From: Siphonodentalium dalli
Taxonomy: Eukaryota > Mollusca > Scaphopoda > Gadilida > Siphonodentaliidae
Assembly: GCA_032622095.1 (NCBI GenBank)
Contig: CP136062.1
Coordinates: 40,672,918-40,736,917 of the forward strand
Length of the DNA stretch: 64,000 nt
Direction: 5' to 3'
Shown here: piece by piece, positions 1-60,599 of the stretch
How the letters are laid out: each line of letters starts with the position of its first letter
How positions within the stretch are numbered: position 1 is the first letter of the stretch
The notes under the pieces: generated by a model
Databases searched by the model: none
What the model was told of the DNA's origin: nothing
What the model saw: only the letters and a program-made list of their open reading frames with translations
Program-made: the position numbers and the translations under genes

Positions 1-448
1 TCCCACCACATACATATATAGGTATCCCCACCACATACATCTATAGGTATCCCCACCACACACATCTATAGGTATCCGCACCACATACATATATATGTAT
101 CCCCACCACATATATATATAGGTATCCCCACCACATACATATATAGGTATCCTCACCACACACATCTTTAGGTATCCCCACCACATATATATATAAGTAT
201 CCTCACCACACACATATATAGGTATCACCACCACAAACATATATAGGTATCCCCGCCACACACACATATATAGGTATCCCCGCCACATACATATATAGGT
301 ATCCCCACCACACACATCTATAGGTATCCCCACCACATACATATATAGGTATGACCACCACATACATATATAGGTATCCCCACCACACACATATATAGGT
401 ATCCCCACCACATACATATATATAGGTATCCCCGCCACACACATATAT
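1..448. repeat. Sat25 satellite array, left segment
   Basis: Tandem copies of a 25-bp monomer run from the first base. The plus-strand consensus is a GGTATCCCCACCAC core followed by the AT-rich tail ATACATATATA. Common variants replace ATACATATA with ACACATCTATA or change CCCCACC to CCCCGCC. The array starts before the window and stops at an island of different sequence at about 449. It is the same family and orientation as the main array to the right of the island, so the island interrupts one array rather than separating two. Confidence 0.97.
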
Positions 449-497
449 TTTGAATTTTGAATTTCCTTGACAATTTTGACCAGATTCGAGTGGGGGG

Positions 498-562
498 TCG
501 ACGTTGCTGAACTTAGCTGATCGGTCGAGAACCGGTGATTTCAACGTGAAATGGCCGTAAAC
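498..562 (-). pseudogene. 5S rRNA pseudogene, 5' part (about nt 1-64)
   Basis: The minus strand starts GTTTACGGCCATTTCACGTT and continues with CACCGGTTCTCG and AGTTCAGCAACGTCG. These correspond to the 5' end, helix II/III region and A-box region of metazoan 5S rRNA. By eye roughly 85% of positions match a typical invertebrate 5S gene recalled from general knowledge; no alignment was run. Homology stops abruptly after GTCGA, where a functional gene would continue into the intermediate element and C box. The gene cannot make a normal 5S rRNA from this copy. Upstream of its first base is ACTTTAT, which may be a relic of the 5S spacer. Confidence 0.85.
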
Positions 563-640
563 ATAAAGTCCCTGTAATTTAAACATCATATGGCTCCACA
601 TCCACCAGTGTTTGAACAATTGAAATGCACAAGTTTTGTT
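563..640 (-). other. Putative relic 5S intergenic spacer
   Basis: This 78-bp sequence lies between the 3' end of one 5S fragment and the 5' start of the next, both in the same orientation. That is the position of the nontranscribed spacer in tandem 5S rDNA. It is shorter than most animal 5S spacers. It has no T-run terminator directly after the 3' part on the coding strand; the sequence there reads AACAAAACTTG. The assignment is positional inference only. Confidence 0.45.
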
Positions 641-681
641 TACAGCACCCGAGATTCCCAGGCGGTCACCCATCCAGGTAT
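641..681 (-). pseudogene. 5S rRNA pseudogene, 3' part (about nt 77-116)
   Basis: The minus strand reads TACCTGGATGGGTGACCGCC and then TGGGAAT and GGGTGCTGTA. This is the C-box and 3' region of 5S rRNA, one of the most conserved parts of the gene. The last few bases (GGCTT in most animals) are absent. At its 5' side the match ends exactly where the satellite begins: the bases GGTAT on the plus strand belong equally to the 5S fragment and to the satellite monomer. About 12 nt of 5S between this fragment and the end of the 5' fragment are missing. Confidence 0.88.
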
Positions 682-3600
682 CACCAACACATACATATAT
701 AGGTATCCCCAACACATAAATATATAGGTATCCCCACCACATAAATATATAGGTATCCCCACCACATACATATATATGTATCCCCACCACAAACATCTAT
801 AGGTATCCCCACCACATTCATATATAGGTATCGCCACCACATACATATATAGGTATCCCCACCACATACAAATATAGGTATCCCCACCACATACATGTAT
901 AGGTATCCCCACCACATACATATATAGGTATCCCCGCCACACACATATATAGGTATCCCCGCCACATACATATATAGGTATCCCCGCCATATACATATAT
1001 AGGAATTCCCGCCACATACACATATAGGTATTCCCGCCAAACACATATATAGGTCTCCCCACCACACACATCTTTAGGTATCCCCACCACACACATATAT
1101 AGGTATCCCCACCACACACATCTATAGGTATCCCCACCACACACATATATAGGTATCCCCACCACACACAGAAATAGGTATCCCCATAACATACATATAT
1201 AGGTATCCCCACCACATATATATATAGGTATCCCACCACACACATATATATGTATCACCACCACACACATATATAGGTATCCCCGCCACATACATATATA
1301 GGTATCCCCGCCACACACATCTATAGGTATCCCCACCACACACATATATAGGTATCTCCACCACATACATATATAGGTATCCCCACCACATACATATATA
1401 GGTATCCCACCACACACATATATATGTATCACCACCACACACATATATAGGTATCCCCACCACATACATATATAGGTATCCCCGCCACACACATATATAG
1501 GTCTCCCCACCACACACATCTATAGGTATCCCCACCACATACATCTATAGGTATCCCCACCACATACATATATAGGTCTCCCCACCACATACATATATAG
1601 GTATCCCCACCACATACATATATAGGTATCCCCACCACATACATATATAGGTATCCCCGCCACATACATATATAGGTATCCCCACCACACACATATATAG
1701 GTATCCCCGCCACACACATATATATGTCTCCCCACACACACATATATAGATATCCCCACCACATACATATATAGGTATCCTCACCACACACATATATATG
1801 TATTCCCACAACATACATATATAGGTCTCCCCACCACATACATATAGATGTATCCCCGCCACATACATATATAGGTATCCCCACCACATACATATATAGG
1901 TATCCCCGCCACATACATATATAGGTATCCCCACCACACACCTATATAGGTATCACCGCCACATACATATATAGGTATCCCCACCACACACATATATAAG
2001 TATCCCCACCACACACATCTATAGGTATCCCCACCACACACATCTATAGGTATCCCCACTAAACACATCTATAGGTATCCCCACCACACACATCTATAGG
2101 TATCCCCACCACATACATATATAGGTATCCCCACCACATACATATATAGGTATCCCCTCCACACACAAATATAGGTATCCCCACCACATACATATATAGG
2201 TATCCCCACCACATACATATATAGGTATCCCCACCGCATATATATATAGGTATCCCCACCACATACATCTATATGTATCCCCACCACACAGATCTATAGG
2301 TATCCCCACCACATACATATATAGGTATCCCCGCCACATACATATATAGGTATCCCCACCACATACATATATAGGTATCCCCACCACACACATCTATAGG
2401 TATCCCCACCACACACATATATAGGTATCCCCACCACACACATATATAGGTATCCCCACCACATACATATATAGGTATCACCACCACACACATATATAGG
2501 TATCTCCACCACAAACATCTATAGGTATCCCCACCACACACATGTATAGGTATCCCCACCACACACATCTATAGGTATCCCCACCACACACATATATAGG
2601 TATCACCACCACATACATATATAGGTATCCCCGCCACATACATATATAGGTATTCCAGCCACACAAATCTATATGTATCCCCACCACACACATATATAGG
2701 TATCACCACCACATACATATATAGGTATCCCCACCACATACATATATAGGTATCCCCACCACAGACATATATAGGTATCACCACCACACACATATATAGG
2801 TATCCCCGCCACATACATATATAGGTATCCCCGCCACACACATATATAGGTCTCCCCACCACACACATCTATAGGTATCCCCACTACATACATCTATAAG
2901 TATCCCCACCACATACATATATAGGTATCCTCACCACACACATATATAGGTATCCCCACCACATACATATATAGGTCTCCCCACCACACTCATATATAGG
3001 TATCCCCACCACACACATATATAGGTATCCCAGCCACACATATATATATAGGTATCCCCACCACACACATCTATATGTATCCCCACCACACACATCTATA
3101 TGTATCCCCACCACACACATCTATAGGTATCCCCAACACACACATCTATAGGTATCCCCCCACATAAATATATAGGTATCCCCACCACATACATATATAG
3201 GTATCCCCACCACACACATATATAGGTATCCCCACCACATACCTATATAGGTATCCCCACCACATACATATATAGGTATCCCCACCACATACATATATAG
3301 GTATCCCCACCACACACATCTATAGGTATCCCCACCACATACATATATAGGTATCCCCACCACATACATATATAGGTATCCCCACCAAATACATATATAG
3401 GTATCCCCACCACACACATATATATATCCCCGCCACACACATATATAGGTATCCCCACCACATACATATATAGGTCTCCCCACCACATACATCTATAGGT
3501 ATCCCCACCACACACATCTATAGGTATCCCAACCACACACATATATAGGTATCACCACCACATACATATATAGGTATCCCCGCGACACACATATATAGGT

Positions 3601-4189
3601 ATCCCCGCCGCATACATATATGGGTATCCCCACCACACACATCTATAGGTATCCCCACCACATACATATATAGGTATCCCCACCACACACATATATAGGT
3701 ATCCCCATCACACACATCTATAGGTATCCCCACCACACACATATATAGGTATCACCACCACATACATATATAGGTATCCCCGCCACATACATATATAGGT
3801 ATTCCCGCCACACACATCTATAGGTATCGCCACCACACACATATATATGTATCACCACCACATACATATATAGGTATCCCCACCACATACATATATAGGT
3901 ATCCCCACCACAGACATATATAGGTATCACCACCACACACATATATAGGTATCCCCGCCACATACATATATAGGTATCCCCGCCACACACACATATAGGT
4001 CTCCCCACCACATACATCTATAGGTATCCCCACCACATACATATATAAGTATCCCCACCACATACATATATAGGTATCCCCACCACACACATATATAGGT
4101 ATCCTCACCACATACATATATAGGTCTCCCCACCACGTACATATATAGGTATCCCCGCTACATACATATATAGGTATCCCCACCACATA

Positions 4190-7100
4190 CATATATAGGT
4201 ATCCCCGCCACATACATATATAGGTATCCCCACCACACACATATATAGGTATCCCCGCCACATACATATATAGGTATCCCCACCACACTCATATATAGGT
4301 ATCCCCACCACACACATATATAGGTATCCCAGCCACACACATATATAGGTATCCCCACCACACACATCTATATGTATCCCCAACACACACATCTATATGT
4401 ATCCCCACCTCACACATCTATAGGTATCCCCTAACACACACATCTATAGGTATCCCCCCACATACATATATAGGTATCCCCACCACATACATATATAGGT
4501 ATCCCCACCACACACATATATAGGTATCCCCACCACATTCATATATAGGTATCCCCACCACATACATATATAGGTATCCCCACCACATACATATATAGGT
4601 ATCCCCACAATATACATCTATATGTATCCCCACCACACACATCTATATGTATCCCCACCACATACATATATAGGTATCCCCACCACATACATATATAGGT
4701 ATCCCCACCAAATACATATATAGGTATCCCCACCACACACATATATATAGGTATCCCCGCCACACACATATATAGGTATCCCCACCACATACATATATAG
4801 GTCTCCCCACCACATACATCTATAGGTATCCCCACCACACACATCTATAGGTATCCCCCACACACACATATATAGGTATCACCACCACATACATATATAG
4901 GTATCCCCGCCACACACATATATAGGTATCCCCGCCACATACATATATGGGTATCCCCACCACACACATCTATAGGTATCCCCACCACATACATATATAG
5001 GTACCCCCCCACGTACATATAGGTATCCCACGACACACATATAGGTATCCCCACCACATACATATATAGGTATCCCCACCACATACATAAAAAGGTATTC
5101 CCACCACATACATATATAGGTATCCCCACCACATACATCTATAGGTATCCCCACCACACACATCTATAGGTATCCGCACCACATACATATATATGTATCC
5201 TCACCACATACATATATAGGTATCCCCACCACATACATATATAGGTATCCCCACAACACACATCTTTTGGTATCCCCACCACATACATATATAAGTATCC
5301 TCACCACACACATATATAGGTATCACCACCACAAACATATATAGGTATCCCCGCCACACACACATATATAGGTATCCCCGCCACATACATATATAGGTAT
5401 CCCCACCACACACATCTATAGGTATCCCAACCACATACATATATAGGTATCACCACCACATACATATATAGGTATCCCCACAACACACACATATAGGTAT
5501 CCCCACCACATACATATATGGGTATCCCCGCAACACACATATATAGGTATCCCCACCACATACATATATAGGTCTCCCCACCACATACATCTATAGATAT
5601 CCCCACCACACACATCTATAGGTATCCCCACCACACACATATATAGGTATCACCACCACATACATCTATAGGTATCACCTCCACATACATATATATGTAT
5701 TCCCAACACATACATATATAGGTATTCCCAACACCTACATATATAGCTATCCCCTCTACATACATATATAGGTATCCCCGCCACATACATATATAGGTAT
5801 CCCCACCACACACATATATAGGTATCCCCGCCACATACATATATAGGTATCCCCACCACACTCATATATAGGTATCCCCACCACACACATATATATGTAT
5901 CCCAGCCACACACATATATAGGTATCCCCACCACACACATCTATATGTATCCCCAACACACACATCTATATGTATCCCCACCTCACACATCTATAGGTAT
6001 CCCCTAACACACACATCTATAGGTATCCCCCCACATACATATATAGGTATCCCCACCACATACATATATAGGTATCCCCACCACTCACATATATAGGTAT
6101 CCCCACCACATTCATATATAGGTCTCCCCCACCACATACATATATAGGTATCCCCACCACATACATATATAGGTATCCCCACAATATACATCTATATGTA
6201 TCCCCACCACACACATCTATATGTATCCCCACCACATACATATATAGGTATCCCCACCACATACATATATAGGTATCCCCACCAAATACATATATAGGTA
6301 TCCCCACCACACACATATATATAGGTATCCCCGCCACACACATATATAGGTATCCCCACCACATACATATATAGGTCTCCCCACCACATACATCTATAGG
6401 TATCCCCACCACACACATCTATAGGTATCCCCCACACACACATATATAGGTATCACCACCACATACATATATAGGTATCCCCGCCACACAAATATATAGG
6501 TATCCCCGCCACATACATATATGGGTATCCCCACCACACACATCTATAGGTATCCCCACCACATACATATATAGGTACCCCCCCACGTACATATAGGTAT
6601 CCCACGACACACATATAGGTATCCCCACCACATACATATATAGGTATCCCCACCACATACATAAAAAGGTATTCCCACCACATACATATATAGGTATCCC
6701 CACCACATACATCTATAGGTATCCCCACCACACACATCTATAGGTATCCGCACCACATACATATATATGTATCCTCACCACATACATATATAGGTATCCC
6801 CACCACATACATATATAGGTATCCCCACAACACACATCTTTTGGTATCCCCACCACATACATATATAAGTATCCTCACCACACACATATATAGGTATCAC
6901 CACCACAAACATATATAGGTATCCCCGCCACACACACATATATAGGTATCCCCGCCACATACATATATAGGTATCCCCACCACACACATCTATAGGTATC
7001 CCAACCACATACATATATAGGTATCACCACCACATACATATATAGGTATCCCCACAACACACACATATAGGTATCCCCACCACATACATATATGGGTATC

Positions 7101-7338
7101 CCCGCAACACACATATATAGGTATCCCCACCACATACATATATAGGTCTCCCCCACCACATACATCTATAGATATCCCCACCACACACATCTATAGGTAT
7201 CCCCACCACACACATATATAGGTATCACCACCACATACATCTATAGGTATCACCTCCACATACATATATATGTATTCCCAACACATACATATATAGGTAT
7301 TCCCAACACATACATATATAGCTATCCCCTCTACATAC
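4190..7338. repeat. Sat25 higher-order tandem duplication, about 1,574-bp unit
   Basis: The order of diagnostic monomers in about 4190-5763 is repeated in about 5764-7338. Matching landmarks are the CCCTAACACACACATC variant (about 4431 and 6004), the CCCACGACACAC variant (5027 and 6601), and the unusual ACATAAAAAGG monomer (5085 and 6659). Offsets are 1,573 to 1,574 bp, which is 63 monomers minus one base. A few single-base differences, such as an extra C near 6126, separate the copies. Block ends are approximate. Confidence 0.85.
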
Positions 7339-7838
7339 ATATATAGGTATCCCCACCACATACATATATAGGTATCCCCACCACATACATATATAGGTAT
7401 CCCCACCAGAAACATATATAGGTATCCCCACCACACACATCTATATTTATCCCCACCACATACATATATAGGTATCACCACCACATACATATATATAGGT
7501 ATCCCCACCATACACATATATAGGTATCCCCGCCACATACATATATAGGTATCACCACCACACACATATATAGTTCTCCCCACCACATACATCTATAGGT
7601 ATCCCCACCACACGCATATATAGGTATCCCCACCACACGCATCTATAGGTATCCCCACCACACACATCTATAGGTATCCCCACCACACACATATAAAGGT
7701 ATCCCCACCATACACATCTATATGTATCCCCGCCACACACATCTATAGGTATCCCCACCACATACATATATAGGTATCCCCACCACACCCATATATAGGT
7801 ATCCCCACCACATACATATATAGGTATCACCACCACAC

Positions 7839-10800
7839 ACATATAGGTATGCCCGCAACATACATATAGGTATTCCCACCAAACACATATAGGTATCCCC
7901 ACCGCACACATCTATAGGTATCACAACCACATACATATATAGGTATCCCCAACACATACATATATAGGTATCCCCACCACATACATATATAGGTCTCCCC
8001 ACCACACACATATATAGGTATCCTCGCCACACACATATATATGTATCCTCACCACACACACATATAGGTATCCCCGCCACATACATCTATAGGTATCCCC
8101 ACCACATACATATATAGATATCCCCACCACACACATATATATGTATCCCCACCACATACATATATAGGTATCCCCACCACATACATAAATAGGTATTCCC
8201 ACCACATACATATATAGGTATCCCCACCACATACATATATAGGTATCCCCACCACACACATCTTTAGGTATCCCCACCACATACATATATAAGTATCCTC
8301 ACCACACACATATATAGGTATCACCACCACAAACATATATAGGTATCCCCGCCACACACACATATATAGGTATCCCCGCCACATACATATATAGGTATCC
8401 CCACCACACACATATATACGTATCCCCACCACATACATATATAGGTATGACCACCACATACATATATAGGTATCCCCACCACACACAAATATAGGTATCC
8501 CCACCTCATACATATATAGGTATCCCCGCAACACACATATATAGGTATCCCCACCACATACATATATAGGTCTCCCCACCACATACATCTATAGATATCC
8601 CCACAACACACATCTATAGGAATCCCCACCACACACATATATAGGTATCACCACCACATACATATATAGGTATCACCACCACATACATATATATGTATCC
8701 CCAACACATACATATATAGGTATTCCCACCACATACATATATAGCTATTCCCTCCACATACATATATAGGTATCCCCACCACATACATATATAGGTATCC
8801 CCACCACATACATATATAGGTATCCCCACCAGAAACATATATAGGTATTCCCACCACACACATCTATATTTATCCCCACCACATACATATATAGGTATCA
8901 CCACCACATACATATATATAGGTATCCCCACCATACACATATATAGGTATCCCCGCCACATACATATATAGGTATCACCACCACACACATATATAGTTCT
9001 CCCCATCACATACATCTATAGGTATCCCCACCACACGCATATATAGGTATCCCCACCACACGAATCTATAGGTATCCCCACCACAGGCATCTATATGTAT
9101 CCCCACCACACACATCTATAGGTATCCCCACACACACATATAAAGGTATCCCCACCATACACATCTATATGTATCCCCGCCACACACATCTATAGGTATC
9201 CCCACCACATACATATATAGGTATCCCCACCACACCCATATATAGGTATCCCCACCACATACATATATAGGTATCACCACCACATACATATAGGTATCCC
9301 CGCAACATACATATAGGTATTCCCACCAAACACATATAGGTATCCCCACCGCACACATCTATAGGTATCACAACCACATACATATATAGGTATCCCCAAC
9401 ACATACATATATAGGTATCCCCACCACATACATATATAGGTCTCCCCCACCACACACATATATAGGTATCCTCGCCACACACATATATAGGTATCCTCAC
9501 CACACACATATATAGGTATCCCCGCCACATACATCTATAGGTATCCCCACCACATACATATATAGGTATCCCCACCACATACATATATAGGTATCACCAC
9601 CACATACATCTATATGTATCACCACCACACACATATATAGGTATCCCCACCACACACATGTATAGGTATCCCCACCACATGCATATATAGGTCTCCCCAC
9701 CACATACATCTATAGGTATCCCCACCACATACATATATACGTATCACCACCACATACATATGTAGGTATCCCCGCCACACACATATATAGGTATCCCCGC
9801 CACATACATATATAGGTATCCCCATCACACACATCTATAGGTATCACCAACACATACATATATAGGTATCCCCAACACATACATATATAGGTATCCCCAC
9901 CACATAAATATATAGGTATCCCCACCACATACATATATAGGTATCCCCACCACATACATATATAGGTATTCCCACCACATACAAATATAGGTATCCCCAC
10001 CACATACATGTATAAGTATTCCCGCCACACACATATATGGGTATCCCCGCCACATACATATATAGGTATCCCCGCCACATACATATATAGGAATTCCCGC
10101 CACATACATATATAGGTATTCCCGCCAAACAGATATATAGGTCTCCCCACCACACACATCTATAGGTATCCCCACCACACACATATATAGGTATCCCCAC
10201 AACACACATCTATAGGTATCCCCACCACACACATATATAGGTATCCCCACCACATACAGATATAGGTATCCCCATAACATACATATATAGGTATCCCCAC
10301 CACATACATATATAGGTAGCCCCACCACACACATATATAGGTATCACCACCACATACATATATAGGTATCCCCGCCACATATATATATAGGTATCCCCGC
10401 CACACACATATATAGGTCTCCCCGCCACATACATATATAGGTATCCCCACCACACACATATATAGGTATCCCCACCACACACATATATATGTATCCCCGC
10501 CACGCACATATATATGTATCCCCACCCACACATCTATAGGTATCCTCACCACACACATCTATAGGTATCCCCACCAATTACATATATAGGTATCCCCACC
10601 ACACACATATATAGGTATCCCCACCACATACATATATAGGTATCACCACCACACACACATATAGGTATCCCCCCACATACATATATAGGTATCCCCACCA
10701 CACACATATATAGGTATCACCGCCACATACATATATAGGTATCCCCGCCACACACATATATAGGTCTCCCCACCACACACATCTATAGGTATCCCCACCA

Positions 10801-13800
10801 CATACATCTATAGGTATCCCCACCACATACATATATAGGTATCACCACCACACTCATATATAGGTATCCCCACCACATACATATATAGGTATCCCCAACA
10901 CACACATATATAGGTATCACCGCCACATACATATATAGGTATCCCCGCCACACACATATATAGGTCTCCCCACCACACACATCTATAGGTATCCCCACCA
11001 CATACATCTATAGGTATCCCCACCACATACATATATAGGTATCCTCACCACACACATATATAGGTATCCCCACCACATACATATATAGGTCTCCCCACCA
11101 CATACATATATAGGTATCCCCGCCACATACATATATAGGTATCCCCACCACATACATATATAGGTATCCCCGCCACACACATATATAGGTCTCCCCACCT
11201 CACACATCTATAGGTATCCCCACCACATACATATATAGGTATCCCCACCACATACATATATAGGTATCACCACCACACACATATATAGGTATCCCCACCA
11301 CACATATATATAGGTATCCCCACCACACACATATATAGGTATCACCGCCACATACATATATAGGTATCCCCACCACACACATCTATAGGTATCCCAACCA
11401 CATACATCTATAGGTTTCCACACCACATACATATATAGGTATCCTCACCACAAACATATATAGGTATTCCCACCACATACATATATAGGTCTCCCCACCA
11501 CATACATATATAGGTATCCCCGCCACATACATATATAGGTATCCCCACCACATACATATATAGGTATCCTCGACACACACATATATATGTCTCCCCACCA
11601 CACACATATATAGGTATCCCCGCCACACACATATATAGTTATCCTCACCACACACATATATAGGTATCCCCGCCACATACATCTATAGGTATCCCCACCA
11701 CATACATATATAGGTATCCCCACCACATACATATATAGGTATCACCGCCACATACATCTAAAGGTATCCCCACCACACACATATATAGGTATCCCCACCA
11801 CACACATATATAGGTATCACCACCACACACATATATAGGTATCCCCACCACATACATATATATGTATCCCCACCACACACATATATAGGTATTCCCACCA
11901 CACACATCTATAGGTATCCCCACCACACACATATATAGGTATCCCCACCACACACATCTATATGTATCCCCACCACACACATATATAGGTATCCCCACCA
12001 CATACAGATATAGGTATCCCCACCACACCCATATATAGGTATCCCCACCACATACATATATAGGTATCACCACCACACACATATAGGTATCCCCGCAACA
12101 TACATATAGGTATTCCCACCAAACACATATAGGTATCCCCACCGCACACATCTATAGGTATCACAACCACATACATATATAGGTATCCCCAACACATACA
12201 TATATAGGTATCCCCACCACATACATATATAGGTCTCCCCACCACACACATATATAGGTATCCTCGCCACACACATATATAGGTATCCTCACCACACACA
12301 TATATAGGTATCCCCGCCACATACATCTATAGGTATCCCCACCACATACATATATAGGTATCCCCACCACATACATATATAGGTATCACCACCACATACA
12401 GATATAGGTATCCCCATAACATACATATATAGGTATCCCCACCACATACACATATAGGTAGCCCCACCACACACATACATAGGTATCACCACCACATACA
12501 TATATAGGTATCCCCGCCACATATATATATAGGTATCCCCGCCACACACATATATAGGTCTCCCCGCCACATACATATATAGGTATCCCCGCCACACACA
12601 TATATAGGTCTCCCCACCACACACATCTATAGGTATCCCAACCACATACATCTATAGGTTTCCACACCACATACATATATAGGTATCCTCACCACAAACA
12701 TATATAGGTATTCCCACCACATACATATATAGGTCTCCCCACCACATACATATATAGGTATCCCCGCCACATACATATATAGGTATCCCCACCACATACA
12801 TATATAGGTATCCTCGACACACACATATATATGTCTCCCCACCACACACATATATAGGTATCCCCGCCACACACATATATAGTTATCCTCACCACACACA
12901 TATATAGGTATCCCCGCCACATACATCTATAGGTATCCCCACCACATACATATATAGGTATCCCCACCACATACATATATAGGTATCACCGCCACATACA
13001 TCTAAAGGTATCCCCACCACACACATATATAGGTATTCCCACCACACACATATATAGGTATCACCACCACACACATATATAGGTATCCCCACCACATACA
13101 TATATATGTATCCCCACCACACACATATATAGGTATTCCCACCACACACATCTATAGGTATTCCCACCACACACATATATAGGTATCCCCACCACACACA
13201 TCTATATGTATCCCCACCACACACATATATAGGTATCCCCACCACATACATATATAGGTATCCCCACCACACCCATATATAGGTATCCCCACCACATACA
13301 TATATAGGTATCACCACCACACACATATAGGTATCCCCGCAACATACATATAGGTATTCCCACCAAACACATATAGGTATCCCCACCGCACACATCTATA
13401 GGTATCACAACCACATACATATATAGGTATCCCCAACACATACATATATAGGTATCCCCACCACATACATATATAGGTCTCCCCACCACACACATATATA
13501 GGTATATAGGTATCCTCGCCACACACATATATATGTATCCTCACCACACACATATATAGGTATCCCCGCCACATACATCTATAGGTATCCCCACCACATA
13601 CATATATAGGTATCCCCACCACATACATATATAGGTATCACCACCACATACAGATATAGGTATCCCCATAACATACATCTATAGGTATCCCCACCACATA
13701 CATATATAGGTATCCTCACCACACACATATATAGGTATCCCCACCACATACATATATAGGTCTCCCACCACATACATATATAGGTATCCCCGCCACATAC

Positions 13801-16800
13801 ATATATAGGTATCCCCACCACATAAATATATAGGTATCCCCGCCACACACATATATAGGTCTCCCCACCTCACACATCTATAGGTATCCCCACCACATAC
13901 ATTTATAGGTATCCCCACCACATACATATATAGGTATCACCACCACACTCATATATAGGTATCCCCACCACATACATATATAGGTATCCCCAACACACAC
14001 ATATATAGGTATCACCGCCACATACATATATAGGTATCCCCGCCACACACATATATAGGTCTCCCCACCACACACATCTATAGGTATCCCCACCACATAC
14101 ATCTATAGGTATCCCCACCACATACATATATAGGTATCCTCACCACACACATATATAGGTATCCCCACCACATACATATATAGGTCTCCCCACCACATAC
14201 ATATATAGGTATCCCCGCCACATACATATATAGGTATCCCCACCACATACATATATAGGTATCCCCGCCACACACATATATAGGTCTCCCCACCTCACAC
14301 ATCTATAGGTATCCCCACCACATACATCTATAGGTATCCCCACCACATACATATATAGGTATCACCACCACACACATATATAGGTATCCCCACCACACAC
14401 ATATATAGGTATCCCCACCACACACATATATAGGTATCACCGCCACATACATATATAGGTATCCCCACCACACACATCTATAGGTATCCCAACCACATAC
14501 ATCTATAGGTTTCCACACCACATACATATATAGGTATCCTCACCACAAACATATATAGGTATTCCCACCACATACATATATAGGTCTCCCCACCACATAC
14601 ATATATAGGTATCCCCGCCACATACATATATAGGTATCCCCACCACATACATATATAGGTATCCTCGACACACACATATATATGTCTCCCCACCACACAC
14701 ATATATAGGTATCCCCGCCACACACATATATAGTTATCCTCACCACACACATATATAGGTATCCCCGCCACATACATCTATAGGTATCCCCACCACATAC
14801 ATATATAGGTATCCCCACCACATACATATATAGGTATCACCGCCACATACATCTAAAGGTATCCCCACCACACACATATATAGGTATCCCCACCACACAC
14901 ATATATAGGTATCACCACCACACACATATATAGGTATCCCCACCACATACATATATATGTATCCCCACCACACACATATATAGGTATTCCCACCACACAC
15001 ATCTATAGGTATCCCCACCACACACATATATAGGTATCCCCACCACACACATCTATATGTATCCCCACCACACACATATATAGGTATCCCCACCACATAC
15101 ATATATAGGTATCCCCACCACACCCATATATAGGTATCCCCACCACATACATATATAGGTATCACCACCACACACATATAGGTATCCCCGCAACATACAT
15201 ATAGGTATTCCCACCAAACACATATAGGTATCCCCACCGCACACATCTATAGGTATCACAACCACATACATATATAGGTATCCCCAACACATACATATAT
15301 AGGTATCCCCACCACATACATATATAGGTCTCCCCACCACACACATATATAGGTATCCTCGCCACACACATATATAGGTATCCTCACCACACACATATAT
15401 AGGTATCCCCGCCACATACATCTATAGGTATCCCCACCACATACATATATAGGTATCCCCACCACATACATATATAGGTATCACCACCACATACAGATAT
15501 AGGTATCCCCATAACATACATATATAGGTATCCCCACCACATACACATATAGGTAGCCCCACCACACACATACATAGGTATCACCACCACATACATATAT
15601 AGGTATCCCCGCCACATATATATATAGGTATCCCCGCCACACACATATATAGGTCTCCCCGCCACATACATATATAGGTATCCCCGCCACACACATATAT
15701 AGGTCTCCCCACCACACACATCTATAGGTATCCCAACCACATACATCTATAGGTTTCCACACCACATACATATATAGGTATCCTCACCACAAACATATAT
15801 AGGTATTCCCACCACATACATATATAGGTCTCCCCACCACATACATATATAGGTATCCCCGCCACATACATATATAGGTATCCCCACCACATACATATAT
15901 AGGTATCCTCGACACACACATATATATGTCTCCCCACCACACACATATATAGGTATCCCCGCCACACACATATATAGTTATCCTCACCACACACATATAT
16001 AGGTATCCCCGCCACATACATCTATAGGTATCCCCACCACATACATATATAGGTATCCCCACCACATACATATATAGGTATCACCGCCACATACATCTAA
16101 AGGTATCCCCACCATACACATATATAGGTATCCCCACCACACACATATATAGGTATCACCACCACACACATATATAGGTATCCCCACCACATACATATAT
16201 ATGTATCCCCACCACACACATATATAGGTATTCCCACCACACACATCTATAGGTATTCCCACCACACACATATATAGGTATCCCCACCACACACATCTAT
16301 ATGTATCCCCACCACACACATATATAGGTATCCCCACCACATACATATATAGGTATCCCCACCACACCCATATATAGGTATCCCCACCACATACATATAT
16401 AGGTATCACCACCACACACATATAGGTATCCCCGCAACATACATATAGGTATTCCCACCAAACACATATAGGTATCCCCACCGCACACATCTATAGGTAT
16501 CACAACCACATACATATATAGGTATCCCCAACACATACATATATAGGTATCCCCACCACATACATATATAGGTCTCCCCACCACACACATATATAGGTAT
16601 CCTCGCCACACACATATATAGGTATCCTCACCACACACATATATAGGTATCCCCGCCACATACATCTATAGGTATCCCCACCACATACATATATAGGTAT
16701 CCCCACCACATACATATATAGGTATCACCACCACATACAGATATAGGTATCCCCATAACATACATCTATAGGTATCCCCACCACATACATATATAGGTAT

Positions 16801-19800
16801 CCTCACCACACACATATATAGGTATCCCCACCACATACATATATAGGTCTCCCACCACATACATATATAGGTATCCCCGCCACATACATATATAGGTATC
16901 CCCACCACATACATATATAGGTATCCCCGCCACACACATATATAGGTCTCCCCACCTCACACATCTATAGGTATCCCCACCACATACATCTATACGTATC
17001 CCCACCACATACATATATAGGTATCACCACCACACACATATATAGGTATCCCCACCACACACATATATAGGTATCCCCACCACACACATATATAGGTATC
17101 ACCGCCACATACATATATAGGTATCCCCGCCACACACATATATAGGTCTCCCCACCACACACATCTATAGGTATCCCAACCACATACATCTATAGGTTTC
17201 CACACCACATACATATATAGGTATCCTCACCACAAACATATATAGGTATTCCCACCACATACATATATAGGTCTCCCCACCACATACATATATAGGTATC
17301 CCCGCCACATACATATATAGGTATCCCCACCACATACATATATAGGTATCCTCGACACACACATATATATGTCTCCCCACCACACACATATATAGGTATC
17401 CCCGCCACACACATATATAGTTATCCTCACCACACACATATATAGGTATCCCCGCCACATACATCTATAGGTATCCCCACCACATACATATATAGGTATC
17501 CCCACCACATACATATATAGGTATCACCGCCACATACATCTAAAGGTATCCCCACCACACACATATATAGGTATCCCCACCACACACATATATAGGTATC
17601 ACCACCACACACATATATAGGTATCCCCACCACATACATATATATGTATCCCCACCACACACATATATAGGTATCCCCACCACATACATATATAGGTATC
17701 CCCACCACACCCATATATAGGTATCCCCACCACATACATATATAGGTATCACCACCACACACATATAGGTATCCCCGCAACATACATATATAGGTATCAC
17801 CACCACACACATATAGGTATCCCCGCAACATACATATAGGTATTCCCACCAAACACATATAGGTATCCCCACCGCACACATCTATAGGTATCACAACCAC
17901 ATACATATATAGGTATCCCCAACACATACATATATAGGTATCCCCACCACATACATATATAGGTCTCCCCACCACACACATATATAGGTATCCTCGCCAC
18001 ACACATATATAGGTATCCTCACCACACACATATATAGGTATCCCCGCCACATACATCTATAGGTATCCCCACCACATACATATATAGGTATCCCCACCAC
18101 ATACATATATAGGTATCACCACCACATACAGATATAGGTATCCCCATAACATACATATATAGGTATCCCCACCACATACATATATAGGTAGCCCCACCAC
18201 ACACATATATAGGTATCACCACCACATACATATATAGGTATCCCCGCCACATATATATATAGGTATCCCCGCCACACACATATATAGGTCTCCCCGCCAC
18301 ATACATATATAGGTATCCCCACCACACACATATATAGGTATCCCCACCACACACATATATATGTATCCCCGCCACGCACATATATATGCATCCCCACCCA
18401 CACATCTATAGGTATCCTCACCACACACATCTATAGGTATCCACACCACTTACATATATATGTATCCCCACCACACACATATATAGGTATCCCCACCACA
18501 TACATATATAGGTATCACCACCACACACACATATAGGTATCCCCCCCACATACATATATAGGTATCCCCACCACACACATATATAGGTATCACCGCCACA
18601 TACATATATAGGTATCCCCGCCACACACATATATAGGTCTCCCCACCACACACATCTATAGGTATCCCCACCACATACATCTATAGGTATCCCAACCACA
18701 TACATATATAGGTATCACCACCACACTCATATATAGGTATCCCCACCACATACATATATAGGTATCCCCAACACACACATATATAGGTATCACCGCCACA
18801 TACATATATAGGTATCCCCGCCACACACATATATAGGTCTCCCCACCACACACATCTATAGGTATCCCCACCACATACATCTATAGGTATCCCCACCACA
18901 TACATATATAGGTATCCTCACCACACACATATATAGGTATCCCCACCACATACATATATAGGTCTCCCCACCACATACATATATAGGTATCCCCGCCACA
19001 TACATATATAGGTATCCCCACCACATACATATATAGGTATCCCCGCCACACACATATATAGGTCTACCCACCTCACACATCTATATGTATCCCCACCACA
19101 TACATCTATATGTATCCCCACCACACACATATATAGGTATCCCCACCACACACATATATAGGTATCCCCACCACACACATATATAGGTATCACCGCCACA
19201 TACATATATAGGTATCCCCGCCACACACATATATAGGTCTCCCCACCACACACATCTATAGGTATCCCAACCACATACATCTATAGGTTTCCACACCACA
19301 TACATATATAGGTATCCTCACCACAAACATATATAGGTATCCCCGCCACATACATATATAGGTATCCCCACCACATACATATATAGGTATCCTCGACACA
19401 CACATATATATGTCTCCCACCACACACATATATAGGTATCCCCGCCACACACATATATAGTTATCCTCACCACACACATATATAGGTATCCCCGCCACAT
19501 ACATCTATAGGTATCCCCACCACATACATATATAGGTATCCCCACCACATACATATATAGGTATCACCGCCACATACATCTAAAGGTATCCCCACCACAC
19601 ACATATATAGGTATCCCCACCACACACATATATAGGTATCACCACCACACACATATATATGTATCCCCACCACATACATATATATGTATCCCCACCACAC
19701 ACATATATAGGTATTCCCACCACACACATCTATAGGTATCCCCACCACACACATATATAGGTATCCCCACCACACACATCTATATGTATCCCCACCACAC

Positions 19801-22800
19801 ACATATATAGGTATCCCCACCACATACATATATAGGTATCCCCACCACACCCATATATAGGTATCCCCACCACATACATATATAGGTATCACCACCACAC
19901 ACATATAGGTATCCCCGCAACATACATATAGGTATTCCCACCAAACACATATAGGTATCCCCACCGCACACATCTATAGGTATCACAACCACATACATAT
20001 ATAGGTATCCCCAACACATACATATATAGGTATCCCCACCACATACATATATAGGTCTCCCCACGACACACATATATAGGTATCCTCGCCACACACATAT
20101 ATAGGTATCCTCACCAAACACATATATAGGTATCCCCGCCACATACATCTATAGGTATCCCCACCACATACATATATAGGTATCCCCACCACATACATAT
20201 ATAGGTATCACCACCACATACATCTATATGTATCACCACCACACACATATATAGGTATCCCCACCACACACATATATAGGTATCCCCACCACATACATAT
20301 ATAGGTCTCCCCACCACATACATCTATAGGTATCCCCACCACATATATATATACGTATCACCACCACATACATATGTAGGTATCCCCGCCACACACATAT
20401 ATAGGTATCCCCGCCACATACATATATAGGTATCCCCACCACACACATCTATAGGTATCACCAACACATACATATATAGGTATCCCCAACACATACATAT
20501 ATAGGTATCCCCACCACATACATATATAGGTATCCCCACCACAAACATCTATAGGTATCCCCACCACATACATATATAGGTATCCCCACCACATACATAT
20601 ATAGGTATTCCCACCACATACAAATATAGGTATCCCCACCACATACATGTATAAGTATTCCCGCCACACACATATATGGGTATCCCCGCCACATACATAT
20701 ATAGGTATCCCGCCACATACATATATAGGAATTCCCGCCACATACATATATAGGTATTCCCGCCAAACAGATATATAGGTCTCCCCACCACACACATCTA
20801 TAGGTATCCCCACCACACACATATATAGGTATCCCCACAACACACATCTATAGGTATCCCCACCACACACATATATAGGTATCCCCACCACATACAGATA
20901 TAGGTATCCCCATAACATACATATATAGGTATCCCCACCACATACATATATAGGTAGCCCCACCACACACATATATAGGTATCACCACCACATTCATATA
21001 TAGGTATCCCCGCCACATATATATATAGGTATCCCCGCCACACACATATATAGGTCTCCCCGCCACATACATATATAGGTATCCCCACCACACACATATA
21101 TAGGTATCCCCACCACACACATATATATGTATCCCCGCCACGCACATATATATGTATCCCCACCCACACATCTATAGGTATCCTCACCACACACATCTAT
21201 AGTTATTCCCACAACTTACATATATAGGTATCCCCACCACACACATATATAGGTATCCCCACCACATACATATATAGGTATCACCACCACACACACATAT
21301 AGGTATCCCCCCACATACATATATAGGTATCCCCACCACACACATATATAGGTATCACCGCCACATACATATATAGGTATCCCCGCCAAACACATATATA
21401 GGTCTCCCCACCACACACATCTATAGGTATCCCCACCACATACATCTATAGGTATCCCCACCACATACATATATAGGTATCACCACCACACTCATATATA
21501 GGTATCCCCACCACATACATATATAGGTATCCCCAACACACACATATATAGGTATCACCGCCACATACATATATAGGTATCCCCGCCACACACATATATA
21601 GGTCTCCCCACCACACACATCTATAGGTATCCCCACCACATACATCTATAGGTATCCCCACCACATACATATATAGGTATCCTCACCACACACATATATA
21701 GGTATCCCCACCACATACATATATAGGTCTCCCTACCACATACATATATAGGTATCCCCGCCACATACATATATAGGTATCCCCACCACATACATATATA
21801 GGTATCCCCGCCACACACATATATAGGTCTCCCCACCTCACACATCTATAGGTATCCCCACCACATACATCTATAGGTATCCCCACCACATACATATATA
21901 GGTATCACCACCACACTCATATATAGGTATCCCCACCACACACATATATAGGTATCCCCACCACACACATATATAGGTATCACCGCCACATACATATATA
22001 GGTATCCCCGCCACACACATATATAGGGTCTCCCCCACCACACACATCTATAGGTATCCCAACCACATACATCTATAGGTTTCCACACCACATACATATA
22101 TAGGTATCCTCACCACAAACATATATAGGTATTCCCACCACATACATATATAGGTCTCCCCACCACATACATATATAGGTATCCCCGCCACATACATATA
22201 TAGGTATCCCCACCACATACATATATAGGTATCCTCGACACACACATATATATGTCTCCCCACCACACACATATATAGGTATCCCCGCCACACACATATA
22301 TAGTTATCCTCACCACACACATATATAGGTATCCCCGCCACATACATCTATAGGTATCCCCACCACATACATATATAGGTATCCCCACCACATACATATA
22401 TAGGTATCACCGCCACATACATCTAAAGGTATCCCCACCACACACATATATAGGTATCCCCACCACACACATATATAGGTATCACCACCACACACATATA
22501 TAGGTATCCCCACCACATACATATATGTGAATCCCCACCACACACATATATAGGTATTCCCACCACACACATCTATAGGTATCCCCACCACACACATATA
22601 TAGGTATCCCCACCACACACATCTATATGTATCCCCACCACACACATGTATAGGTATCCCCACCACATACATATATAGGTATCCCCGCCACAAACATATA
22701 TAGTTATCCTCACCACACACATATATAGGTATCCCCACCACATACATATATAGGTCTCCCCACCACATACATATATAGGTTTCCCCGCCACATACATGTT

Positions 22801-25800
22801 GAGGTATCCCCGCCACACACATATATAGGTATCCCCACACATACATATATAGGTATCCCCACCACACACATATATAGGTATCCCCACCACACACATCTAT
22901 AGGTATCCCACCACACACATATATAGGTATCCCCACCACATACATATATAGGTATCCCCACCACATACATAAATAGGTATTCCCACCACATACATATATA
23001 GGTATCCCCACCACATACATCTATAGGTATCCCCACCACACACATCTATAGGTATCCGCACCACATACATATATATGTATCCTCACCACATACATATATA
23101 GGTATCCCCACCACATACATATATAGGTATCCCCACAACACACATTTTTAGGTATCCCCACCACATACATATATAAGTATCCTCACCACACACATATATA
23201 GGTATCACCACCACAAACATATATAGGTATCCCCGCCACACACACATATATAGGTATCCCCGCCACATACATATATAGGTATCCCCACCACACACATCTA
23301 TAGGTATCCCCACCACATACATATATAGGTATCACCACCACATACATATATAGGTATCCCCACCACACACACATATAGGTATCCCCACCACATACATATA
23401 TGGGTATCCCCGCAACACACATATATAGGTATCCCCACCACATACATATATAGGTCTACCCACCACATACATCTATAGATATCCCCACCACACACATCTA
23501 TAGGTATCCCAACCACACACATATATAGGTATCTCCACATACATCTATAGGTATCACCACCACATACATATATATGTATCCCCAACACATACATATATAG
23601 GTATTCCCACCACATACATATATAGCTATCCCCTCTACATACATATATAGGTATCCCCACCACATACATATATAGGTATCCCCATCACATACATATATAG
23701 GTATCCCCACCAGAAACATATATAGGTATCCCCACCACACACATCTATATTTATCCCCACCACATACATATATAGGTATCACCACCACATACATATATAT
23801 AGGTATCCCCACCATACACATATATAGGTATCCCCGCCACATACATATATAGGTATCACCACCACACACATATATAGTTCTCCCCACCACATACATCTAT
23901 AGGTATCCCCACCACATACATATATAGGTATCACCACCACACACATATATAGGTATCCCCACCACACACATATATAGGTATCCCCACCACACACATATAT
24001 AGGTATCACCGCCACATACATATATAGGTATCCCCGCCACACACATATATAGGTCTCCCCACCACACACATCTATAGATATCCCAACCACATACATCTAT
24101 ATGTTTCCACACCACATACATATATAGGTATCCTCACCACAAACATATATAGGTATTCCCACCACATACATATATAGGTCTCCCCACCACATACATATAT
24201 AGGTATCCCCGCCACATACATATATAGGTATCCCCACCACATACATATATATAGGTATCCTCGACACACACATATATATGTCTCCCCACCACACACATAT
24301 ATAGGTATCCCCGCCACACACATATATAGTTATCCTCACCACACACATATATAGGTATCCCCGCCACATACATCTATAGGTATCCCCACCACATACATAT
24401 ATAGGTATCCCCACCACATACATATATAGGTATCACCGCCACATACATCTAAAGGTATCCCCACCACACACATATATAGGTATCCCCACCACACACATAT
24501 ATAGGTATCACCACCACACACATATATAGGTATCCCCACCACATACATATATATGAATCCCCACCACACACATATATAGGTATTCCCACCACACACATCT
24601 ATAGGTATCCCCACCACACACATATATAGGTATCCCCACCACACACATCTATATGTATACCCACCACACACATATATCGGTATCCCCACCACATACATAT
24701 ATAGGTATCCCCGCCACAAACATATATAGTTATCCTCACCACACACATATATAGGTATCCCCACCACATACATATATAGGTCTCCCCACCACATACATAT
24801 ATAGGTATCCCCGCCACATACATGTTGAGGTATCCCCGCCACACACATATATAGGTATCCCCACACATACATATATAGGTATCCCCACCACACACATATA
24901 TAGGTATCCCCACCACACACATCTATAGGTATCCCCACCACACACATATATAGGTATCCCCACCACATACATATATAGGTATCCCCACCACATACATAAA
25001 TAGGTATTCCCACCACATACATATATAGGTATCCCCACCACATACATCTATAGGTATCCCCACCACACACATCTATAGGTATCCGCACCACATACATATA
25101 TATGTATCCTCACCACATACATATATAGGTATCCCCACCACATACATATATAGGTATCCCCACAACACACATTTTTAGGTATCACCACCACAAACATATA
25201 TAGGTATCCCCGCCACACACACATATATAGGTATCCCCGCCACATACATATATAGGTATCCCCACCACACACATCTATAGGTATCCCCACCACATACATA
25301 TATAGGTATCCGCACCACACACACATATAGGTATCCCCACCACATACATATATGGGTATCCCCGCAACACAAATATATAGGTATCCCCACCACATACATA
25401 TATAGATCTCCCCACCACATACATCTATAGATATCCCCACCACACACATCTATAGGTATCCCCACCACACACATATATATGTATCACCACATACATCTAT
25501 AGGTATCACCACCACATACATATATATGTATCCCCAACACATACATATATAGGTATTCCCACCACATACATATATATCTATCCCCTCTACATACATATAT
25601 AGGTATCCCCACCACATACATATATAGGTATCCCCACCACATACATATATAGGTATCCCCACCAGAAACATATATAGGTATCCCCACCACACACATCTAT
25701 ATTTATTCCCACCACATACATATATAGGTATCACCACCACATACATATATATAGGTATCCCCACCATACACATATATAGGTATCCCCGCCACATACATAT

Positions 25801-28800
25801 ATAGGTATCACCACCACACACATATATAGTTCTCCCCACCACATACATCTATAGGTATCCCCACCACACGCATATATAGGTATCCCCACCACACGCATCT
25901 ATAGGTATCCCCACCACACACATCTATAGGTATCCCCACCACACACATATAAAGGTATTCCCACCATATACATCTATATGTATCCCCGCCACACACATCT
26001 ATAGGTATCCCCACCACATACATATATAGGTATCCCCACCACACCCATATATAGGTATCCCCACCACATACATATATAGGTATCACCACCACACACATAT
26101 AGGTATCCCCGCAACATACATATAGGTATTCCCACCAAACACATATAGGTATCCCCACCGCACACATCTATAGGTATCACAACCACATACATATATAGGT
26201 ATCCCCAACACATACATATATAGGTATCCCCGCCACATACATATATAGGTCTCCCCACCACACACATATATAGGTATCCTCGCCACACACATATATATGT
26301 ATCCTCACCACACACATATATAGGTAACCCCGACACATACATCTATAGGTATCCCCACCACATACATATATAGATATCCCCACCACACACATATATATGT
26401 ATCCCCACCACATTCATATATAGGTATCCCCACCACATACATAAATAGGTATTCCCACCACATACATATATAGGTACCCCCACCACATACATCTATAGGT
26501 ATCCCCACCACATACATCTATAGGTATCCGCACCACATACATATATATGTATCCCCACCACATACATATATAGGTATCCCCACCACATACATATATAGGT
26601 ATCCCCACCACACACATCTTTGGGTATCCCCACCACATACATATATAAGTTTCCTCACCACACACATATATAGGTATCACCACCACAAACATATATAGGT
26701 ATCCCCGCCACACACACATATATAGGTATCCCCGCCACATACATATATAGGTATCCCCACCACACACATCTATAGGTATCCCCACCACATACATATATAG
26801 GTATGACCACCACATACATATATAGGTATCCCCACCACACACATATATAGGTATCCCCACCACATACATATATAGGTATCCCCGCAACCCACATATATAG
26901 GTATCCCCACCACATACATATATAGGTCTCCCCACCACATACATCTATAGATATCCCCACCGCACACATCTATAGGAATCCCCACCACACACATATATAG
27001 GTATCACCACCACATACATCTATAGGTATCACCACCACGTACATATATATGTATCCCCAACACATACATATATAGGTATTCCCACCACATACATATATAG
27101 CTATCCCCTCCACATACATATATAGGTATCCCCACCACATACATATATAGGTATCCCCACCACATACATATATAGGTATCCCCACCAGAAACATATATAG
27201 GTATCCCCACCACACACATATATAGGTATCCCCACCACATACATATATAGGTATCACCACCACATACATATATATAGGTATCCCCACCATACACATATAT
27301 AGGTATCCCCGCCACATACATATATAGGTATCACCACCACACACATATATAGTTCTCCCCACCACATACATCTATAGGTATCCCCACCACACGCATCTAT
27401 AGGTATCCCCACCACACGCATCTATAGGTATCCCCACCACACACATCTATAGGTATCCCCACCACACATATATAAAGGTATCCCCACAATACACATCTAT
27501 ATGTATCCCCGCCACACACATCTATAGGTATCCCCACCACACACATATATAGGTATCCCCACCACACACATCTATATGTATCCCCACCACACACATATAT
27601 AGGTATCCCCACCACATACATATATAGGTATCCCCGCCACAAACATATATAGTTATCCTCACCACACACATATATAGGTATCACCACCACAAACGTATAT
27701 AGGTATCCCCGCCACACACACATATATAGGTATCCCCGCCACATACATATATAGGTATCCCCACCACACACTTCTATAGGTATCCCCACCACATACATAT
27801 ATAGGTATCACCACCACATACATATATAGGTATCCCCACCACACACACATATAAGTATCCCCACCACATACATATATGGGTATCCCCGCAACACACATAT
27901 ATAGGTATCCCCACCACATACATATATAGGTCTCCCCACCACATACATCTATAGATATCCCCACCACACACATCTATAGGTATCCCCACCACACACATAT
28001 ATAGGTATCACCACATACATCTATAGGTATCACCACCACATACATATATATGTATCCCCAACACATACATATATAGGTATTCCCACCACATACATATATA
28101 GCTATCCCCTCTACATACATATATAGGTATTCCCACCACATACATATATAGGTATCCCCACCACATACATATATAGGTATCCCCACCAGAAACATATATA
28201 GGTATCCCCACCACACACATCTATATTTATCCCCACCACATACATATATAGGTATCACCACCACATACATATATATAGGTATATCCACCATACACATATA
28301 TAGGTATCCCCGCCACATACATATATAGGTATCACCACCACACACATATATAGTTCTCCCCACCACATACATCTATAGGTATCCCCACCACACGCATATA
28401 TAGGTATCCCCACCACACACATCTATAGGTATCCCCACCACACACATCTATAGGTATCCCCACCACACACATATAAAGGTATCCCCACCATACACATCTA
28501 TATGTATCCCCGCCACACACATCTATAGGTATCCCCACCACATACATATATAGGTATCCCCACCACACCCATATACAGGTATCCCCACCACATACATATA
28601 TAGGTATCACCACCACACACATATAGGTATCCCCGCAACATACATATAGGTATTCCCACCAAACACATATAGGTATCCCCACCGCACACATCTATAGGTA
28701 TCACAACCACATACATATATAGGTATCCCCAACACATACATATATAGGTATCCCCACCACATACATATATAGGTCTCCCCACCACACACATATATAGGTA

Positions 28801-42275: not shown

Positions 42276-42375
42276 NNNNNNNNNNNNNNNNNNNNNNNNN
42301 NNNNNNNNNNNNNNNNNNNNNNNNNNNNNNNNNNNNNNNNNNNNNNNNNNNNNNNNNNNNNNNNNNNNNNNNNNN
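42276..42375. other. Assembly gap (100 N)
   Basis: There are exactly 100 N bases, a conventional placeholder for a gap of unknown size. Sat25 ends at its left edge and Sat26 starts at its right edge, so the junction between the two satellite families is not observed. Their adjacency and relative orientation depend on scaffolding. Confidence 0.99.
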
Positions 42376-44174: not shown

Positions 44175-44956
44175 TACCGGGGGACATTAAGTGTTCGCGC
44201 TACCGGGGGACTTTAAGTGTTTGCACTACCGGGGGGACATTAAGTGTTCGCGCTGCCGGGGGACTTTAAGTGTTCGCGCTACCGGGGGACATTAAGTGTT
44301 CGCGCTGCCGGGGACCGTAAGTGTTCGCGCTACCGGGGGGACTTTAAGTGTTCGCGCTACCGGGGGACTTTAAGTGTTCGCGCTACCGGGGGGACATTAA
44401 GTGTTCGCGCTGCCGGGGACCGTAAGTGTTCGCGCTGCCGGGGGACTTTAAGTGTTCGCGCTACCGGGGGGACATTAAGTGTTCGCGCTGCCGGGGACCG
44501 TAAGTGTTCGCGCTACCGTGGGACATTAAGTGTTCGCGCTACCGGGGGACATTAAGTGTTCGCGCTACCGGGGGACATTAAGTGTTCGCGCTACCGGGGG
44601 ACTTTAAGTGTTTGCACTACCGGGGGGACATTAAGTGTTCGCGCTGCCGGGGGACTTTAAGTGTTCGCGCTACCGGGGGACATTAAGTGTTCGCGCTGCC
44701 GGGGACCGTAAGTGTTCGCGCTACCGGGGGGACTTTAAGTGTTCGCGCTACCGGGGGACTTTAAGTGTTCGCGCTACCGGGGGGACATTAAGTGTTCGCG
44801 CTGCCGGGGACCGTAAGTGTTCGCGCTGCCGGGGGACTTTAAGTGTTCGCGCTACCGGGGGGACATTAAGTGTTCGCGCTGCCGGGGACCGTAAGTGTTC
44901 GCGCTACCGTGGGACATTAAGTGTTCGCGCTACCGGGGGACATTAAGTGTTCGCGC
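44175..44956. repeat. 391-bp tandem duplication inside Sat26
   Basis: A block of 15 monomers, recognisable by the rare GTGTTTGCACTACC variant at about 44218 and again at about 44609 and by the CCGTGGGAC variant in each copy, is repeated at an offset of 391 bp. A 312-base stretch starting at 44244 and at 44635 translates identically, so the copies look identical or nearly so over most of their length. This points to a recent event or active homogenisation. Ends are approximate. Confidence 0.85.
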
Positions 44957-51587: not shown

Positions 51588-51589
51588 TT

Positions 51590-54334: not shown

Positions 54335-54335
54335 T

Positions 54336-60567: not shown

Positions 60568-60569
<2 letters not shown>

Positions 60570-60599
<30 letters not shown>

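What the first reader, a model, noticed from the sequence alone, without database searches (positions are those of the whole stretch)
449..682. Split, permuted 5S rRNA relic inside a 42-kb satellite array
Two segments on the minus strand match the 5' part (562-498) and the 3' part (681-641) of an animal 5S rRNA gene, in the order 3' part, 78-bp spacer, 5' part. That is the order found across the junction of two tandem 5S genes. It is the only non-satellite sequence in the array, so the array may have a 5S rDNA origin or may have captured a 5S unit.
Basis: partly seen in the sequence, partly recalled or inferred. Interest (0 to 1): 0.7.

Follow-up and report, generated by a model that had tools for sequence, protein, structure and literature searches.

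The report
5S fragment caught in satellite break
A broken, rearranged piece of an animal 5S ribosomal RNA gene sits once inside a long run of a simple 25-base repeat, most likely stitched in when a DNA break was repaired; it is a genomic scar rather than a working gene.

Summary
Minus-strand 562-499 matches 5S positions 1-64 and 680-638 matches positions 76-118, in the order 3' part, 75-bp AT-rich spacer, 5' part. Against a 5S gene found here, 0 of 2000 shuffles reached either score. Neither part reaches Rfam's gathering score. The island, 449-675, is the only non-satellite stretch in 1-42275.

A 5S origin of the array is not supported: the 25-bp unit resembles 5S no more than shuffles do. Capture of a 5S unit is supported.

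New here: the island lies on a rearrangement junction. Eleven other copies of its left flank and six of its right flank exist in the array. They are never adjacent; in four places they lie 1268-1296 bp apart. Register is kept and there is no target-site duplication. The two 5S ends nearly abut, so the piece is about one unit (~193 bp) opened inside the gene, as a cut circle would give.

Three of 15 helix II/III pairs are broken, box C precedes box A, and no T-run terminator is present: a dead relic, best read as filler DNA from break repair. No host genome is held, so donor and copy number are untested.

The parts
1..448 (.). Left flank: 25-bp satellite; ends in monomer phase ...ACATATAT
   Evidence: alignment to the unit. 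11 other copies of 249-448 in the array at 186-196 of 200 identical, 11 of 11 ending ACATATAT
449..497 (-). 49 bp of unknown origin, holding about 2.3 copies of a 7-bp AT-rich repeat at its outer end (sequence reading)
   Evidence: No match in the array; only 10-11-base chance-level matches in 42376-64000 and in L001/L002
499..562 (-). 5' part of a 5S rRNA gene, positions 1-64
   Evidence: 49/64 identical to L001 5S, 0 of 2000 shuffles reach the score; Rfam RF00001 23.9 bits, below gathering
563..637 (-). 75-bp AT-rich spacer between the two 5S parts
   Evidence: No 5S similarity beyond shuffles (0.09 to 0.85 of shuffles reach the score); GC 0.346 and no TTTT, computed on 563-640
638..680 (-). 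3' part of a 5S rRNA gene, positions 76-118, with an unbroken 21-base box C region at 655-675; 676-680 is shared with the satellite
   Evidence: 38/44 columns identical to L001 5S, 0 of 2000 shuffles; Rfam 17.4 bits, E 0.4
676..42275 (.). Right flank: 25-bp satellite, resuming in register with AGGTATC, up to the N gap
   Evidence: 6 other copies of 676-875 at 186-195 of 200 identical, 6 of 6 preceded by ACATCTAT instead of ACATATAT
445..683 (.). Bracket of the array rearrangement junction, coinciding with the island
   Evidence: Base-by-base comparison of left and right copies; four left-right copy pairs lie 1268, 1271, 1271 and 1296 bp apart, none adjacent

Best explanation
The island is an orphan 5S rDNA fragment, about one repeat unit opened inside the gene, plus 49 bp of other DNA, captured when a break in the satellite array was repaired. 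Shown: the two 5S pieces and their order, the single occurrence in the array, no visible target-site duplication, the kept register, and the joining of two array segments that elsewhere lie about 1.27 kb apart. Inferred: that break and capture were one event. A broken or stalled array end was joined to, or copied, a 5S piece (possibly a small extrachromosomal circle, since the two 5S ends nearly abut), and repair resumed further along the array with loss of about 51 monomers. The piece has no predicted activity: box C lies upstream of box A, positions 65-75 with the intermediate element are missing, and no terminator follows the 3' part.
For: 5S identity. One island in 42 kb. 11 of 11 other left copies do not continue as the right flank does (following 100 bp only 83-89% identical to 676-775), and 6 of 6 other right copies are preceded by a different monomer ending; no pair is adjacent, and four pairs lie 1268-1296 bp apart, two of the intervening 1271-bp segments being 99.4% identical to each other. 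The switch falls within 445-683. The only flanking direct repeat is the satellite's own. Right junction: satellite TACCT overlies 5S TACTT on the minus strand, 4 of 5 bases, an imperfect microhomology. The 5S ends at positions 64 and 76-81 nearly abut. Filler capture at breaks, including nuclear DNA, is documented (PMC2567098 and PMC11724301, passages); 5S circles exist in human cells (PMC3225859 abstract).
Against: Rearranged junctions are common in this array: of 300 random spans, 216 had an adjacent copy pair, 39 had none and 45 had no copies on one side, so the coincidence of island and junction could be two events. The left contrast is modest: the 100 bp before right copies is still 91-92% identical to the left flank. 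A loss of about 1.27 kb is larger than the small deletions reported for numt patches, although other fillers show larger ones. The 49 bp have no known source, and the other junction shows no testable microhomology. Paralogous copies are not an allelic empty site. Circle and two-gene-junction donors cannot be told apart.
Confidence: 0.55

Rival explanations
1. The island is a fragment of a 5S-derived repeat family of the host (a 5S-derived satellite of about 193 bp, like frog PcP190, or a 5S-headed SINE or TRIM) that entered the array by recombination or transposition.
For: Unit size of 118 + 75 bp resembles PcP190 (about 190 bp with a 120-bp 5S-like region, PMC11675491 passages). The 5S pieces are degenerate (3 of 15 helix II/III pairs broken, no terminator) although the flanks closely match their copies, as if the donor had already decayed. 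The outer end has a short AT-rich repeat like a SINE tail.
Against: Less than one unit and no tandem copies in the window. No uninterrupted 5S head, no target-site duplication, no terminal repeats. Ajax keeps box A, IE and box C in its LTR (PMC10886601); the island does not.
Confidence: 0.22
2. A 5S junction fragment or circle inserted cleanly into one monomer, and the mismatch between left and right array segments comes from an unrelated later or earlier rearrangement.
For: Register is kept exactly across the island, as in a clean insertion. 39 of 255 evaluable random spans also lack adjacent copies.
Against: The junction falls on the island within a few bases on either side, which two independent events would rarely give.
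Confidence: 0.14
3. Assembly artefact: a collapsed or chimeric join inside the repeat array.
For: Short-unit arrays are hard to assemble and this one ends in an N gap. No reads are available to me.
Against: A collapse would not supply 227 bp of 5S and other unique sequence; the register is kept.
Confidence: 0.07
4. The 25-bp array itself arose from 5S rDNA.
For: Only the 5-base overlap with 5S at the right junction.
Against: The unit matches 5S and the island no better than its own shuffles, and no intermediate form occurs in 42 kb.
Confidence: 0.02

Closest known systems
Dispersed degenerate 5S copies / orphons (Esox, PMC5437419 passages; orphon idea in PMC3225859 section 15)
   Same: Degenerate 5S sequence away from the main 5S arrays
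   Different: Here the piece is permuted, under one unit long, and sits inside an unrelated short-unit satellite on a rearrangement junction
Filler-DNA capture at double-strand breaks (numts, PMC2567098; templated insertions in yeast, PMC11724301; passages)
   Same: Foreign sequence at a junction with loss of target sequence and no target-site duplication
   Different: The donor is 5S rDNA, the target is a satellite array, and the loss is about 1.27 kb and inferred from paralogous copies
5S extrachromosomal circles (PMC3225859 abstract and section 15)
   Same: Would give one unit opened at an arbitrary point
   Different: No circle was observed here; inferred from the nearly abutting ends only
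PcP190 satellite of frogs (PMC11675491 passages)
   Same: About 190-bp unit with a 5S-like part and a variable part
   Different: PcP190 is a tandem array; here there is one incomplete unit
5S-headed SINE3, Ajax and Cassandra (PMC10886601 passages and parts 1-3 of 6)
   Same: Partial 5S sequence in a non-genic place
   Different: Those rely on the 5S promoter region in order; Ajax makes 5-bp target-site duplications; the island has neither

Membership tests
5S rRNA gene (RF00001) | Covariance-model score at or above gathering | tested here: not met
   0 hits at gathering; 23.9 and 17.4 bits against 38
5S rRNA gene (RF00001) | Intact helices II and III | tested here: not met
   3 of 15 pairs broken in the island, 0 of 15 in L001
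5S rRNA gene (RF00001) | Contiguous gene with box A, IE and box C in order | tested here: not met
   Parts in the order 3' then 5', positions 65-75 missing; box positions from PMC6204057
5S rRNA gene (RF00001) | T-run terminator after the 3' end | tested here: not met
   No TTTT in 563-640 on the minus strand
5S-headed SINE (SINE3) | Uninterrupted 5S promoter region at the 5' end | tested here: not met
5S-headed SINE (SINE3) | Target-site duplication | tested here: not met
   The only flanking direct repeat is the satellite's own, spacing 252
5S-headed SINE (SINE3) | Many copies in the genome | not testable with these tools
   No host genome held
TRIM with 5S (Ajax, Cassandra) | Two long terminal repeats with the 5S promoter region | tested here: not met
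   No internal direct repeat found in 430-700 other than the satellite. A solo LTR is not excluded by this, but lacks the ordered promoter
5S-derived satellite (PcP190-like) | Unit of about 190 bp with a 5S-like part | tested here: met
   118 + 75 bp from the coordinates, compared
5S-derived satellite (PcP190-like) | Tandem array of such units | tested here: not met
   One incomplete unit in the window; elsewhere in the host not testable
Filler DNA at a repaired break | No target-site duplication | tested here: met
Filler DNA at a repaired break | Flanks not contiguous in the undisturbed arrangement | tested here: inconclusive
   Flank copies lie 1268-1296 bp apart in four places and adjacent in none, but these are paralogous copies, not the allelic empty site, and 39 of 255 evaluable random spans also lack adjacent copies
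Filler DNA at a repaired break | Microhomology at the junctions | tested here: inconclusive
   Imperfect 4 of 5 bases at the right junction; left junction untestable, donor of the 49 bp unknown

The most novel reading that the evidence does not exclude
The island is one monomer of an undescribed 5S-derived repeat family of about 193 bp in this invertebrate, a PcP190-like satellite or mobile element, whose copies circularise and patch breaks in an unrelated 25-bp satellite array, so that array turnover and 5S-repeat dispersal are linked.
Probability: 0.15. Interest if true: 0.45.

Novelty: new member of a known kind. Interest (0 to 1): 0.2.

Why it matters
Foreign pieces in satellite arrays are natural markers of break repair and array turnover. 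This one can be read base by base: about one 5S unit opened inside the gene, sitting on a join between array segments that are otherwise 1.27 kb apart. If the junction is confirmed in other individuals, it is a scar showing that short-unit satellites can capture orphan or extrachromosomal 5S DNA. It does not change what is known about 5S genes.

Tried and rejected
A 5S origin of the satellite: local alignment of the unit to three 5S sequences and to the island was no better than shuffles. SINE3, Ajax and Cassandra membership: no target-site duplication, no terminal repeats, promoter not in order. A functional 5S gene: Rfam gathering not reached, helices broken. tRNA genes in the window: 0 by ARAGORN with the bacterial code. 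Relatives in viral contigs: five exact-pattern scans, 0 hits each (5S/island patterns; satellite units). Genome contigs was scanned once with the 21-base box C pattern: 2 loci. L001 carries 5S, U1, U2 and three histone 3' elements and looks animal although its record is titled as a bacterial MAG; Rfam gave no gathering hit on L002. Source of the 49-bp piece: only 10-11-base matches. Literature: eight searches. No title or abstract among those listed described a permuted 5S unit inside a short-unit satellite; most listed papers were not opened, so this is weak evidence of absence. A lead that a mollusc satellite derives from a Nin-SINE (PMC11121367, passages) was dropped because that SINE is tRNA-derived.

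This suggests a mollusc-like host but does not prove it.

Full report
What is there. Bases 2-42274 are reported by TRF as a 25-bp satellite (88% matches); my wrap-around alignment of 1-42275 gives an overall identity of 0.928 to the unit. The array is already running at the window's start and ends at a run of N, 42276-42375. The alignment finds one stretch that is not satellite, 434-685. The inserted bases proper are 449-675, 227 bp.

Is it 5S? Yes. On the minus strand 562-499 aligns to 5S positions 1-64 and 680-638 to positions 76-118 of an animal-type 5S gene on L001, at 49/64 and 38/44. Scores were 53 and 54 against shuffle maxima of 26 and 28; 0 of 2000 shuffles reached either. L001 comes from a record titled as a bacterial MAG, but Rfam finds 5S, U1, U2 and three histone 3' elements on it. 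Rfam gives nothing at gathering score for the window. At E<=10 it gives two RF00001 hits in this place, 23.9 bits (E 0.0076) and 17.4 bits (E 0.4, weak alone), against a cut-off of 38. The order 3' part, spacer, 5' part is as reported; my boundaries make the spacer 563-637, 75 bp.

State of the 5S pieces. Three of 15 pairs of helices II/III are broken (0 of 15 in L001). Helix I, formed between the two pieces, pairs 9 of 9, which happened in 4.1% of trials that placed the same number of changes at random; the parent arms of that trial were recalled and paired 8 of 9, so this is a hint only. Positions 65-75 are missing. The 21-base box C region at 655-675 is unbroken but lies upstream of box A. 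There is no TTTT in 563-640, whereas a T-rich stretch follows the gene in Donax (PMC6204057 passages). I infer that it cannot work as a 5S gene or in this order as a Pol III promoter. The gene parts have GC 0.49 and 0.595 and the spacer 0.346, like the gene and spacer of Donax (53.4-55% against 33.1-39.1%); the Donax spacers are longer, 157-367 bp.

One unit, opened inside the gene. The 5' part stops at position 64 and the 3' part begins at 76 (81 if the five bases shared with satellite are left out). The two ends therefore nearly abut, and 118 + 75 gives a unit of about 193 bp. A fragment across two neighbouring genes would have independent ends; a single circle cut once would have abutting ends. 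This favours a circle only mildly. 5S circles are reported in human cells, with earlier findings in Drosophila and plants (PMC3225859 abstract), and reintegration as orphons has been proposed (section 15).

The flanks. The left flank ends ACATATAT and the right flank resumes AGGTATC, so register is kept; the only flanking direct repeat is the satellite's own (spacing 252 = 227+25). Eleven other copies of the left flank (249-400 at 95% or better) and six of the right flank (676-825 at 94.5% or better) occur in the array. Aligned with gaps, the left copies are 186-196 of 200 identical and the right copies 186-195 of 200. In 11 of 11 left copies the next 100 bp is only 83-89% identical to 676-775; in 6 of 6 right copies the preceding monomer ends ACATCTAT, not ACATATAT, although the preceding 100 bp is still 91-92% identical to 349-448, so the left contrast is the weaker one. 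No left copy is directly followed by a right copy. In four of the six right copies a left copy ends 1268, 1271, 1271 or 1296 bp before it; two of these intervening segments are 99.4% identical to each other. Base by base the switch falls within 445-683, on the island. The control is not clean: of 300 random spans, 216 had an adjacent copy pair, 39 had none and 45 lacked copies on one side. Rearranged junctions are therefore not rare in this array; what is unusual is that this junction coincides with the island to within a few bases.

Reading. The simplest account is one repair event: a break in the array, capture or copying of about one degenerate 5S unit plus 49 bp of unknown DNA, and rejoining about 51 monomers further on. 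None of the other flank copies carries the island, so the array's own duplications did not spread it within the window. The flanks match their copies at 93-98%, while the 5S pieces are 77% and 86% identical to L001 and have broken pairs. L001 is not the host's own 5S, so part of this is species divergence; but the broken pairs suggest that the donor was already degenerate, or that the island is older than the conversion-refreshed flanks. Pikes carry such dispersed degenerate copies, about 4% of their 5S (PMC5437419 passages). Filler capture at breaks is documented (PMC2567098, PMC11724301, passages), though numt patches usually go with no or small deletions.

What it is not. It is not a working 5S gene, and it does not show SINE3, Ajax or Cassandra structure: no ordered promoter, no target-site duplication, no terminal repeats. 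The array is not visibly derived from 5S. A PcP190-like 5S-derived repeat family elsewhere in the host (compare) cannot be excluded, because no host genome is held; five exact-pattern scans of viral contigs gave nothing, which says little about a host genome.

Verdict. It is a neat but ordinary genomic scar.

Noticed in passing
50588-54990 and 59598-64000: Direct duplication of at least 4.4 kb, 99.2% identical over 4408 columns, cut by the window's end. Each copy follows a 26-bp array, so 26-bp array plus unique DNA forms a larger repeat of about 9 kb.
   Followed up: partly
42376-50585 and 57655-59597: Second satellite, unit of 26 bp (GTTCGCGCTACCGGGGGACATTAAGT), GC about 0.6; the second block also shows 79- and 105-bp higher periods.
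   Followed up: no
50785-50884 and 56391-56595: Related nested inverted repeats of 30-68 bases (GCAGAATGAGGTCC...TGAATTT...), like foldback or MITE-type elements.
   Followed up: no
51719-51993 and 60755-61014: Two-copy tandem repeats of 135-139 bp beside TGTC runs; weaker 69-72% self-matches in 51560-53093 suggest an older diverged array.
   Followed up: no
window 1-42275: The 25-bp array has long segmental copies, for example 5001-5400 and 6575-6974 identical and the 1271-bp segments after 33758 and 36158 at 99.4%.
   Followed up: partly
L001 1-5648: A genome contigs record titled 'MAG: bacterium isolate GMC4.maxbin2.282' carries U1, U2, 5S and three histone 3' stem-loops: an animal-type small-RNA and histone cluster, probably mis-binned.
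   Followed up: partly
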